Origin: an uncultured Opitutaceae bacterium
GTDB taxonomy: Bacteria > Verrucomicrobiota > Verrucomicrobiia > Opitutales > Opitutaceae
Assembly: GCA_903929355.1 (NCBI GenBank)
Contig: CAIYUN010000057.1
Coordinates: 1 to 64,000 of the forward strand
Reading direction: 5' to 3'
DNA length: 64,000 bases
Below are positions 11,026 to 18,405 of the stretch, in pieces. Positions within the stretch are counted from its first letter, which is position 1; the number at the start of each line of letters is the position of its first letter. Under the pieces are notes generated by a model. That model was not told the origin of the DNA and made no database searches. It saw nothing but the letters and a program-made list of their open reading frames with translations. The translations under genes and the position numbers were made by a program.

Positions 11026-11685
11026 ATGACTTCAAATCTCCCCTGCATGAAGCCCCTGCTGCAATCCTTTCTGTGGTGTCCCCTGTCCGTCCTTCTCGCC
11101 CTCGCCGCCGTCCCCTCGCGGGGCGCGGATGCGCCGGCGGCGCCGGCTGCGGCCAAGGCCGCGGTCGAGGTCTCCAATGTGACCTTTAACAGTCCGCAGG
11201 GAGCCGGCAGCGCCCTGCCTTGGCAGGAGGTGGTGGTCGAGCTCAAGGTCAACCCGACGAAGGAGGGCAATTATGTGAGCCATGTGAAGGTGACCCTCAC
11301 TTTGGGGACGGAGGTCACGGTCGGAGCCAAGCGCATCGACTTTTATCGCGCTGCGGCCGAGGCGGTGGCGCTGAAGGTGGGATCCAAGGCACTTTTCAGA
11401 TTTTATCTGCCGCCTGAAATCGTCGAACGCGACAGTCTGCATGGCGAGACGAAGTATTATGCGGCGGAGGTTTCGGTCGGCGGCCAGGCCCAGCCGGCCT
11501 CCCACGAGAGCCACACCCGCGATCCCAAGGTGATGCCGAGCGTCCAGTCCTTTCTGGCCAAGGCGGCGGCCGACGGGGCGGTCAACGATGGCATTCTGCT
11601 CCCGCAGATGTTTACGCCGTTCGAGCACGACAACACCAAGGAAGCCCCCACTTTTGTCCGGCCCGAGGCCGCGGCCACAAAATAA
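11026..11685 (+). CDS. Amuc_1102-like secreted protein, first gene of the PilMNOPQ-like locus
   Basis: Strong SD (aaggagaagg) upstream; signal peptide; predicted beta-rich ~220 aa protein; position immediately before the PilM-like gene as in Akkermansia Amuc_1102-1098. Confidence 0.65.
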   Translation: MTSNLPCMKPLLQSFLWCPLSVLLALAAVPSRGADAPAAPAAAKAAVEVSNVTFNSPQGAGSALPWQEVVVELKVNPTKEGNYVSHVKVTLTLGTEVTVGAKRIDFYRAAAEAVALKVGSKALFRFYLPPEIVERDSLHGETKYYAAEVSVGGQAQPASHESHTRDPKVMPSVQSFLAKAAADGAVNDGILLPQMFTPFEHDNTKEAPTFVRPEAAATK

Positions 11686-11748
11686 ATTCAAGATTCTGCT
11701 TGCCGGTTTCCGGCAGTTCTGAAATCCAATCCGCTCCCCAATTTACCC

Positions 11749-15473: not shown

Positions 15474-15534
15474 ACGACCCCCAATCTGCCCCCTCCCTTC
15501 CTTTCTCCAGACCCAACATCTTAGCCCTTCCCTA

Positions 15535-18405
15535 ATGAAAAAGATACTGCTCCCCCAATCGTCCCTCGTGTTGCTGGCGGCCCTGCTGGCTCTGGCCCTG
15601 CCTGCGGGTCGGCTCACCGCCCAGGTCAACACCGACGCCAAGATAGGTCTCATGACCGAAGCCATCCGCGCCAGCGACAAGGGCGATTTGGTCACGGCCA
15701 AGAAGGATTACGAGGCGCTCCTCGCACTCGACCCGTCCAACGCCGACGTGCAGCAGAAGCTCGCTGACGTGAACGCGAAGATCGCCGCGTCACCCGCCAT
15801 GGCGAAGAAGGTCGCCGCCGCCGACGCGAAGGCCGCAAGTGCCGCCGCCGCCAAGGCCAAGGCGGAGGCCGCCGCCGCCGCCAAGGCGGAGCAGGACCGC
15901 ATCAACCATCTCATTGCCGCCGCCCGGTCCCAGGGCCAGGCCGCCGCCGCCCAGGTTGCCGCCGACGGCAACATTGAAACCGCCGCCGCAACGCTCGACG
16001 CCGCGGTCGGAACGTTGAACGGCGTGGCCAGCGCCCAACCGCTGGTGGCCGACCTCCAAAGACAGAAGGCCGAGTTGCCGCTCGCCAAGGTCCAGTCGCA
16101 ACTGAGCCATGGCGACACCGTCGGGGCCAGGATCACCTTGGATGCCTACACCGCAGCCAATCCCGACAGCACCGCCGCGGCCGCGTCGAGTGCCGCCGTC
16201 AATTACGCCGAGCTTCATCCCGCAATCCCGCCGTTTGTGAAGACCAGTGGGGATTACCTCACCGACCAGAAGCGGATCGCCGGCCTGATCGCGGTTGGCC
16301 GCAGCCAGTACTTGGGTGGCAATCTCTCCGGGGCGGAGGGGACGTTTAAAGACGTGATTGGCATTGACCCCTATGACACGGAGGCCACGTATTTTCTGAG
16401 TAAGATTTCCGAGCAGATCGACCGGGCGGCGGTGCAGGCGCGGGAAGAGTACACCAAACGGATGATTACGGAAGTGGACGCGGGATTCGCCCCGCCCACC
16501 GTCGTGGGCAGCGCCAAGAGCACCCTCCATGTGGATGTGAAAGAGAGCCCGTTGCTCAAAAAACTCGACGCCATCATCCTGCCCGAGGTTAATTTCAACA
16601 ACTTGGAGATCGACAAGGTCGTGCAGGCGCTCGGACAGATGTCCGTGCAGTTTGACCAGACCGCCGAGGGGAACAAGGGCGTAAACATCGTCCTCAACGA
16701 GGAAACGCCCAAGACGACCGTCAAGATTCAGTTGCGCAACCTGTCGCTTTTCCGGGTACTGACGATTATCACCGAAAAGGTGGGCTACCAGTTTGACGTC
16801 AAGCAGGATGTGGTCGTGCTCAGCACCGGCGGCGGTGGTGGCGCGGGCGGTCCGAACCTGAACACGGAATACTTTCCGGTCACCAAGGCCACGGTTTCCC
16901 GGATCACCGGTGCCACTGGCGTGAGCAGCGCTGCGGCCTCCGACAGCGCAGCGGATCCATTTGCCGCGGCCACCCCCTCCACCACCGCAGCCGCCCCGGC
17001 GGCGCCCAGCGCCCCCTCCAGCTCAGGTGATGCGGCCTCGATCCAGGGCTTCTTCCAAAATGCCGGGGTGGATTTTAACGCGGTCAAGGGCTCGTCCATG
17101 GCCTACGATGGCTCGACGATCATTGTCACGCAGACCGCGAAGAACATCGACAAGATTCGCAACATCCTCGCCCGCTACAACGACATCAAGCAGGTCTCGA
17201 TCGAGACCAAGTTCATTGAGGTCCAGGAGGACAAATTGAGTGAGGTCGGGGTCAACTGGAATGTTGCCCGTCAAAACGGCCGCCAGACCGCTGGTACCAT
17301 CAACGGCAACGGCGGATCCAACAGCGTGCGCACCCTTTCGGATGCCGTCAGTAACACCGCCCCGTCGCAAACCGGGTCGATCACGATTCCTGGCACTCCC
17401 GGAATCCCGGCCACGGCGGCGGTCACCACCCCGGTCTTTAACTCGGTGACGGGTGCGGTGGTGGGCACCGCCACGCTGGCGCCTGCCTCTCCGGGCAGCC
17501 CTGGCACTCCTCAAACTGTTATTCCCACCACCCTCGCGGCCCCCGTCCTTCCCGGGCAGTCGAACCTTGCGACCGGTGCGACCTCGCTGATCAACGCATC
17601 CAAGCTCATTGGCACCTTTGAGGTTCAGGCGGTGGTGAACGCCCTCAACCAGTCGAGTGGCAGCGAGCTGCTCAGTTCGCCCTCGGTCACGGTCCTGTCA
17701 GGCAATCCGGCCAATATCACCGTGGCCCAGGAGCTCCGCTATCCGCAGTCGTTTGGCGACCCGCGCAGCACCGCCAGCAACGGCGGCGCCGTCAGCCTGA
17801 CGCCGGGCACCCCGCAGGAATTCACCACCCGCAATGTCGGCATCGAGCTGAAGGTCACCCCGACCGTCGAGGACGACGATTACAGCATCAGCCTTGACCT
17901 CAACCCGCGGGTCACCGAGTTCGATGGCTTTATTGAGTATGGTGGCCAGAGCGTCGCCATCGCCCCCGGCAGCTCGGCCAGCGTGTCCGTTATTTCAAGT
18001 CTGACCGGCGGGGGTAGCAGCGCCGGCCAGTCCACCGTGGTCACCGTGCCGTCCGGCTTCTTCCAGCCTGTCTTCTCCACCCGTGAGGTCACCACCAAGG
18101 TCACCATCTGGGACGGGGCCACCTTGGTCATGGGCGGTCTGACCCGCGAGGAGGTCAAGAAGGTCAGTGACTCGGTTCCGATTCTTGGAGATATCCCTCT
18201 GATTGGTAAACTGTTCCAGTCCAAGGGGGAGAGCGTCCAGAAGCGCAATCTGCTCATCTTCGTCACCGCCAATCTGGTCAGCCCCGGCGGCTCGCTCAAG
18301 AAGCAGGATCTCAACCATGTGCCGCGCGACTCGATGTATCAGGAGGGTGCCGTCGCGACCCCCGGTGGCGACGAGTCCCGCGTGCGGGCTCCGGCCAGCA
18401 AGTAA
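15535..18405 (+). CDS. Secretin (PilQ/GspD-like, Amuc_1098-like) outer-membrane channel
   Basis: Secretin C-terminal signature VEDDDYSISLDLNPRVTEF ... GATLVMGGLTREEVKKVSDSVPILGDIPLIGKLFQSKGESVQKRNLLIFVTANLV; signal peptide; Ala/Lys-rich repeat N-terminal domain. Confidence 0.93.
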   Translation: MKKILLPQSSLVLLAALLALALPAGRLTAQVNTDAKIGLMTEAIRASDKGDLVTAKKDYEALLALDPSNADVQQKLADVNAKIAASPAMAKKVAAADAKAASAAAAKAKAEAAAAAKAEQDRINHLIAAARSQGQAAAAQVAADGNIETAAATLDAAVGTLNGVASAQPLVADLQRQKAELPLAKVQSQLSHGDTVGARITLDAYTAANPDSTAAAASSAAVNYAELHPAIPPFVKTSGDYLTDQKRIAGLIAVGRSQYLGGNLSGAEGTFKDVIGIDPYDTEATYFLSKISEQIDRAAVQAREEYTKRMITEVDAGFAPPTVVGSAKSTLHVDVKESPLLKKLDAIILPEVNFNNLEIDKVVQALGQMSVQFDQTAEGNKGVNIVLNEETPKTTVKIQLRNLSLFRVLTIITEKVGYQFDVKQDVVVLSTGGGGGAGGPNLNTEYFPVTKATVSRITGATGVSSAAASDSAADPFAAATPSTTAAAPAAPSAPSSSGDAASIQGFFQNAGVDFNAVKGSSMAYDGSTIIVTQTAKNIDKIRNILARYNDIKQVSIETKFIEVQEDKLSEVGVNWNVARQNGRQTAGTINGNGGSNSVRTLSDAVSNTAPSQTGSITIPGTPGIPATAAVTTPVFNSVTGAVVGTATLAPASPGSPGTPQTVIPTTLAAPVLPGQSNLATGATSLINASKLIGTFEVQAVVNALNQSSGSELLSSPSVTVLSGNPANITVAQELRYPQSFGDPRSTASNGGAVSLTPGTPQEFTTRNVGIELKVTPTVEDDDYSISLDLNPRVTEFDGFIEYGGQSVAIAPGSSASVSVISSLTGGGSSAGQSTVVTVPSGFFQPVFSTREVTTKVTIWDGATLVMGGLTREEVKKVSDSVPILGDIPLIGKLFQSKGESVQKRNLLIFVTANLVSPGGSLKKQDLNHVPRDSMYQEGAVATPGGDESRVRAPASK

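What the first reader, a model, noticed from the sequence alone, without database searches (positions are those of the whole stretch)
11026..18405. Complete Amuc_1102-1098-type locus (Amuc_1100 neighbourhood) outside the gut Akkermansia context
Seen: five tightly spaced co-directional genes ended by a strong terminator (18434-18469): a ~220-aa secreted beta-rich protein, a 557-aa PilM-like ATPase with a TM/coil C-terminal PilN-like domain, a PilO-like single-pass protein, a PilP-like single-pass protein, and a 956-aa secretin. Established knowledge: Akkermansia muciniphila Amuc_1098-1102 has this order (secretin, hypothetical, Amuc_1100, PilM-like, Ig-like Amuc_1102), and Amuc_1100 is the studied host-interacting protein. 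Inference: the window's organism appears environmental, so the locus is probably an ancient Verrucomicrobial PilM(N)OPQ-type trans-envelope complex, not a host-adaptation module. No pilin, PilB/PilT or PilC gene is visible here, so its cargo is unknown.
Basis: partly seen in the sequence, partly recalled or inferred. Interest (0 to 1): 0.85.

Follow-up and report, generated by a model that had tools for sequence, protein, structure and literature searches.

The report
Verrucomicrobial pilus envelope complex (MUL2-type)
These five genes are the same set that gut Akkermansia carries for mucus use (including the probiotic protein Amuc_1100), but the set occurs across almost the whole bacterial phylum and most likely builds the envelope-spanning half of a type IV pilus whose motor genes lie elsewhere in this genome.

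Summary
The five genes, their order and the terminator are real. All five match the Amuc_1102-1101-1100-1099-1098 families in order, below the equivalog cut-offs; comparison with Akkermansiaceae proteins confirms each gene. AlphaFold models of the 1100- and 1102-like proteins find Amuc_1100 and Amuc_1102 as best PDB matches; the 1100 fold is also PilO. The 1101-like protein is PilM fused to PilN. So this is a PilM/N-O-P-Q alignment complex plus a secreted beta-sandwich protein.

It is not gut-specific: the PilM gene is in about 260 of 295 sampled Verrucomicrobiota genomes, usually in the same five-gene order. Conservation in Akkermansiaceae was published in 2026 (MUL2 locus).

What is added here is the partner. 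This genome has PilB-PilT-PilB-PilC on another contig, with no secretin beside it. In other families the same motor cassette is fused to this locus. Motor and locus are mostly kept or lost together, and four reduced genomes have this type as their only secretin. The T2SS and a second, Opitutales-only PilMNOPQ set have their own secretins.

Verdict: divergent type IV pilus envelope module; new member of a known kind. The role of the 1102-like protein and the use of the pilus remain unshown.

The parts
11026..11685 (+). Amuc_1102-like (MUL2A-like) secreted beta-sandwich protein; ordinary signal peptide, no type IV prepilin leader
   Evidence: NCBIfam Amuc_1102 rank 1, E 0.02; hhalign with Akkermansiaceae 1102 group 96.7%, E 4e-10; AlphaFold pLDDT 84, best PDB matches are the three 7DSZ chains
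11749..13422 (+). PilM-PilN fusion (Amuc_1101/MUL2B-like): actin-like PilM domain residues 9-322, then PilN part
   Evidence: Amuc_1101 family E 5e-99, TIGR01175 PilM E 3e-31; only PF11104 PilM_2 match in the genome; PDB PilM 3jc8, 2ych, 5eou
12790..12804 (+). PilN box VNLLP (residues 348-352), followed by a transmembrane helix at about residues 368-386 (12850-12906)
   Evidence: Motif or a variant in 55 of 69 other loci, with a hydrophobic segment about 20 residues later; Pfam PilN PF05137 in 2 relatives, best E 7e-5
13442..14443 (+). PilO-like single-pass protein (Amuc_1100-like)
   Evidence: NCBIfam Amuc_1100 E 3e-14; profile without Akkermansia sequences hits Amuc_1100 in the PDB at 7e-8; AlphaFold pLDDT 90 matches 6LAD/6KNY, then PilO 3jc8_Oa, 2rjz, 5uvr
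14445..15473 (+). Single-pass protein in the PilP position (Amuc_1099-like), without the TSP3-type calcium motif seen in many relatives
   Evidence: hhalign with Akkermansiaceae 1099 group 96.0%, E 4e-9
15535..18405 (+). PilQ-type secretin (Amuc_1098-like) with a weak TPR match near the N-terminus (about 15676-15780)
   Evidence: Amuc_1098 family E 1e-106; Secretin PF00263 E 4e-37, TPR_11 E 0.007
17641..18279 (+). Secretin pore domain
   Evidence: PF00263, residues 703-915
18433..18469 (+). Intrinsic terminator closing the operon
   Evidence: 14-pair stem, 3-base loop, T run

Best explanation
The locus encodes the envelope-spanning alignment complex of a divergent type IV pilus that is ancestral to Verrucomicrobiota. 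PilM fused to PilN sits at the inner membrane. The 1100-like protein is PilO and the 1099-like protein fills the PilP place; together they link PilM/N across the periplasm to the PilQ secretin in the outer membrane. The 1102-like beta-sandwich is a conserved secreted accessory. The pilus is assembled and retracted by PilB-PilT-PilB-PilC, encoded apart on contig C91, from PilA-like pilins scattered in the genome. Shown by computation: gene identities, PilO and 1102 folds, PilM-PilN fusion, phylum-wide operon, linkage and co-loss with the motor. Inferred: physical assembly, pilus formation, and use for attachment and possibly glycan capture as proposed for the Akkermansia MUL2 locus.
For: Identity. 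PilM-PilN. Phylum-wide PilM; five-gene order in 49 of 68 fetched loci and four-gene core in 7 more, several of the rest cut by contig ends. Motor in this genome: rho-PilB-PilT-PilB-PilC at C91. Fused clusters: L088/L089 (one family) PilB-PilT-PilB-PilC directly before 1102-PilM-O-P-PilQ, with three pilin-like genes between in L089; L121 (second family) PilQ followed by PilB-PilB-PilT-PilC; L122 PilC and five pilin-like genes on the same contig. coaE-rho adjoins the motor in Opitutales, and coaE and rho follow PilQ in several other families. Presence of PilM and of C91-type PilC agrees in 280 of 295 genomes (253 both, 27 neither; Fisher 8e-25, not corrected for phylogeny). G118, G210, G151 and G178 have one secretin, of this type, and one PilC. 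The rival compact PilM occurs only in Opitutales, 32 of 295, and does not track the motor (p 0.41).
Against: No experiment. Motor and locus are unlinked in this genome and in most genomes. Fifteen of 295 genomes are discordant (for example G110 has the motor without the locus, G060 the reverse), and presence calls rest on E-value thresholds I chose. The PilC gene here is split between two frames. PilP homology of the 1099-like protein is by position and topology only; no PilP model matched. No standard type IV pilus has a 1102-like component (my knowledge).
Confidence: 0.8

Rival explanations
1. The complex has specialised as a glycan-capture and import machine: a secretin with a short or retracting pseudopilus pulls polysaccharide into the periplasm, with the 1102-like protein as adhesin or gate, rather than making ordinary motility or attachment pili.
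For: The homologous Akkermansia locus is called mucin utilization locus 2 and is proposed to mediate attachment and uptake; marine Akkermansiaceae take up fluorescent fucoidan (PMC13174399). PilT belongs to the linked cassette, which fits retraction.
Against: No glycan genes adjoin the locus here. The locus is near universal in a phylum of varied diets. The same gene set fits any retracting pilus.
Confidence: 0.3
2. The window complex serves the type II secretion system or another assembly machine, while the C91 motor uses the compact PilMNOPQ set on contig C53.
For: The genome carries three secretins and several PilB/PilT paralogues. The compact secretin resembles PilQ more closely (TIGR02515 E 1e-71).
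Against: GspD-E-F are adjacent with their own secretin, and GspH-L-like genes lie on C58. The compact set is confined to Opitutales and does not track the motor. A. muciniphila has only Amuc_1098-type secretins.
Confidence: 0.08
3. The locus is an Akkermansia-type host-interaction module that spread by horizontal transfer.
For: Amuc_1100 has reported host effects (PMC5332112).
Against: Near-universal presence across the phylum, with only 11-20% identity of the 1100 and 1102 proteins between distant families, in conserved gene order.
Confidence: 0.02

Closest known systems
Akkermansia muciniphila Amuc_1098-1102 (MUL2) locus
   Same: Five families in the same order and orientation; same folds for 1100 and 1102; PilM with TM extension; large secretin last
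   Different: Only 13-19% identity for the 1100 and 1102 proteins; below NCBIfam equivalog cut-offs; flanked by NUDIX and pyruvate dehydrogenase genes instead of rho; 1099-like protein lacks the DxDxDG motif that Akkermansiaceae 1099 proteins have
Type IVa pilus alignment complex PilM-PilN-PilO-PilP-PilQ (Pseudomonas, Myxococcus)
   Same: PilM family, PilN box, PilO fold, single-pass protein in PilP position, PilQ-type secretin last; linked PilB/PilT/PilC in some relatives
   Different: PilM and PilN are fused; PilP-position protein not recognisable by sequence; extra secreted beta-sandwich protein; motor genes unlinked here
Type II secretion system GspC/L/M/D
   Same: Same superfamily; weak GspM match of the PilO-like protein (E 0.003)
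   Different: The genome has a separate T2SS with its own GspD-E-F and GspH-L-like genes

Membership tests
MUL2 / Amuc_1098-1102 locus | Five genes 1102-1101-1100-1099-1098 in order and co-directional | tested here: met
MUL2 / Amuc_1098-1102 locus | Homology of each protein to the Akkermansia protein | tested here: met
   1101 and 1098 by NCBIfam; 1102, 1100, 1099 by hhalign 96.7, 99.2, 96.0% against an unrelated-pair control of 0.1%
MUL2 / Amuc_1098-1102 locus | Scores above NCBIfam equivalog cut-offs | tested here: not met
   333 of 650, 53 of 180, 358 of 750 bits, and lower for the other two: same families by homology and position, not equivalogs by that rule
MUL2 / Amuc_1098-1102 locus | Needed for growth on mucin or other glycans | not testable with these tools
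   needs mutants
Type IV pilus alignment complex | PilM, with the PilN motif INLLP | tested here: met
Type IV pilus alignment complex | PilO fold (TM, coiled coil, ferredoxin-like domain) | tested here: met
   Pfam PilO in one relative, E 1e-5
Type IV pilus alignment complex | PilP with HR domain | tested here: inconclusive
Type IV pilus alignment complex | PilQ-family secretin | tested here: met
   secretin domain certain; best family is Amuc_1098, general PilQ and GspD models match about equally below their cut-offs
Type IV pilus machine | PilB, PilT, PilC, prepilin peptidase and PilA-like pilins in the genome | tested here: met
   PilC reading frame broken here
Type IV pilus machine | Motor genetically tied to this alignment complex | tested here: met
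   fused clusters in two families, coaE-rho neighbour, co-loss, single-secretin genomes
Type IV pilus machine | Pili observed and dependent on the locus | not testable with these tools
   needs microscopy and mutants

The most novel reading that the evidence does not exclude
Verrucomicrobiota share a distinct type IV pilus subtype defined by a PilM-PilN fusion, a long secretin and a regularly present secreted beta-sandwich partner (1102), so that Amuc_1100, studied as a surface pilus signal, is by origin the PilO strut of the machine's periplasmic scaffold, and the 1102-like protein is a new pilus component.
Probability: 0.55. Interest if true: 0.65.

Novelty: new member of a known kind. Interest (0 to 1): 0.48.

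Why it matters
Amuc_1100 is studied as a host-signalling surface protein. Placing it as PilO in a phylum-wide pilus scaffold makes two questions testable: how a periplasmic strut would reach the host, and whether the mucin role of MUL2 is an ordinary pilus function reused in the gut. It also names a likely partner (the coaE-rho-linked PilB-PilT-PilB-PilC cassette) that can be deleted in culturable strains.

Tried and rejected
Single-sequence PDB searches for the 1100- and 1102-like proteins found nothing useful, and the Opitutales-only 1102 profile also missed 7DSZ; profile-profile comparison and folds were needed. The profile hits on 7DSZ and Amuc_1100 with alignments A7/A8 are circular because they contain Akkermansia sequences, so they are not used as evidence; the AlphaFold alignments contain a few such sequences too, but no templates were used. 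The T2SS and the compact PilMNOPQ set were considered as users of this secretin and rejected. Reading the 1102-like protein as a classical type IV pilin was rejected because it has no GFxxxE prepilin leader and no pilin model matched. Searching homologues of the 1099-like protein gave only one close relative. Davey 2023 and an Amuc_1100 structure paper are not held, so their content is known only second-hand or not at all.

Full report
What is there. Five co-directional ORFs at 11026-18405 with gaps of 63, 19, 1 and 61 bases end in a 14-pair terminator at 18433-18469. NCBIfam assigns, in order, the Amuc_1102, 1101, 1100, 1099 and 1098 families; 1101, 1100 and 1098 are significant (5e-99, 3e-14, 1e-106), 1102 and 1099 are not on their own (0.02, 0.11), and all lie under the equivalog cut-offs. 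The genome is 3.80 Mb in 91 contigs. The nearest named loci are Opitutae and other Verrucomicrobia MAGs, which keep the five genes and the flanking NUDIX and pyruvate dehydrogenase genes.

Are they the Akkermansia proteins? One sampled genome, G115, is taken to be the A. muciniphila type strain: its length is 2,664,102 bases (my knowledge of that genome), and two of its proteins are the PDB Amuc_1100 and Amuc_1102 sequences. Its locus has the same five slots. Alignments of Opitutales proteins and of Akkermansiaceae proteins, made apart, match by hhalign: 1102 96.7% (E 4e-10), 1100 99.2% (7e-20), 1099 96.0% (4e-9); a mismatched pair gives 0.1%. A profile of Opitutales 1100-like proteins alone hits Amuc_1100 in the PDB at 7e-8. 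AlphaFold models are good (pLDDT 90 and 84). The best PDB matches are Amuc_1100 (E 3e-9) followed by PilO of Myxococcus and Pseudomonas, and for the other model only Amuc_1102 below E 0.001. The alignments behind the models hold a few Akkermansia sequences, so those top matches are not fully independent; the PilO matches are.

What each part does. The 557-aa protein has the PilM domain (E 1e-22; PDB PilM). Directly after it come VNLLP and a transmembrane helix, as at the start of PilN; this box or a variant is in 55 of 69 other loci, followed by a hydrophobic helix, and Pfam PilN matches two relatives. So PilM and PilN are one protein. The next is PilO by fold. The 1099-like protein has the topology and place of PilP, but no PilP model matched. 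Many relatives outside Opitutales carry a bacterial TSP3-type DxDxDG motif that all 14 Opitutales sequences lack. The last is a secretin with a weak TPR match near its N-terminus. The first is a secreted beta-sandwich without a prepilin leader.

Distribution. The Amuc_1101 model matches 282 of 295 sampled Verrucomicrobiota genomes, 260 of them below E 1e-15 (threshold mine). Of 68 fetched loci from many families, 49 show the full five-gene order by ORF size and 7 the four-gene core; several of the rest are cut by contig ends. Wilkie and colleagues reported conservation within Akkermansiaceae and neighbouring Verrucomicrobiales (PMC13174399), and PilQ homologues in other Verrucomicrobia were noted in 2016 (PMC4960237). 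The survey here extends the operon to Opitutales and to most other families sampled.

The missing motor. The genome has three secretins but one PilM_2 match. One secretin belongs to GspD-E-F on C53, with GspH-L-like genes on C58. A second belongs to a compact PilM-N-O-P-Q set on C53. The third is the window's. The cluster rho-PilB-PilT-PilB-PilC on C91 has no secretin. Four lines tie it to the window locus. First, in two genomes of one family PilB-PilT-PilB-PilC runs straight into the 1102-PilM-O-P-PilQ genes, with three pilin-like genes between them in L089, and in another family the motor follows PilQ. Second, coaE-rho adjoins the motor in Opitutales, and coaE and rho follow PilQ in other families. 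Third, PilM and C91-type PilC are both present in 253 and both absent in 27 of 295 genomes, against 15 discordant; in Opitutales alone 35 and 7 against 2. These tests do not correct for phylogeny and use E-value thresholds of 1e-15 and 1e-65 that I chose. Fourth, four reduced Opitutales genomes have a single secretin, of this type, and a single PilC, and A. muciniphila has two secretins, both of the Amuc_1098 family. The compact set is in 32 genomes, all Opitutales, and does not track the motor (p 0.41).

Working model. PilM-PilN, PilO, the 1099-like protein and PilQ form the trans-envelope frame; PilB and PilC assemble and PilT retracts pilins of PilA type, of which several are in the genome, with one prepilin peptidase. 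Attachment to surfaces, and possibly glycan capture, is the likeliest use, by analogy with MUL2. The 1102-like protein is so regularly encoded first in the operon that it should be a structural or gating partner; what it does is not known.

Limits. No wet evidence. PilC in this assembly is split between two frames. The 1099-like protein was not modelled. Key papers on MUL2 function and on Amuc_1100 structure were not held, so whether the PilO likeness of Amuc_1100 has been stated there could not be checked.

Noticed in passing
L019:13248-14536 (G000 contig C91): The PilC gene of the motor cluster is split into two overlapping frames (360 and 73 aa), while relatives have one ORF of about 430 aa; frameshift mutation or assembly error.
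   Followed up: partly
L071, L072, L097, L099, L100, L101, L102, L108, L121: In several families two large ORFs, in several cases both secretin-like, follow the 1099-like gene in tandem, suggesting duplication of PilQ in the operon.
   Followed up: no
alignment A9; L113, L114, L115, L120 and others: 1099-like proteins of many families carry a bacterial TSP3-type motif DxDxDGFxNxEE (PF18884 in 13 of 42); the 14 Opitutales proteins tested do not.
   Followed up: partly
L141 (G115:C1:1979191-1981593): A. muciniphila's only other secretin is a second Amuc_1098-family protein with no PilM beside it.
   Followed up: no
L021:7915-12577 (G000 contig C53): A compact PilM-N-O-P-Q-like operon with its own secretin, found only in Opitutales (32 of 295 genomes); its motor is unknown.
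   Followed up: partly
L143:2777-3921 (G000 contig C18), L146, L028: Several very similar PilA-like major pilins are scattered over the genome, two of them close together.
   Followed up: no
G010, G145, G290, G080, G089, G095, G136 (Opitutales) and families f9, f11, f15, f16, f18: Lineages that lack both the locus and the C91-type PilC; several of the Opitutales among them keep only the compact set.
   Followed up: partly
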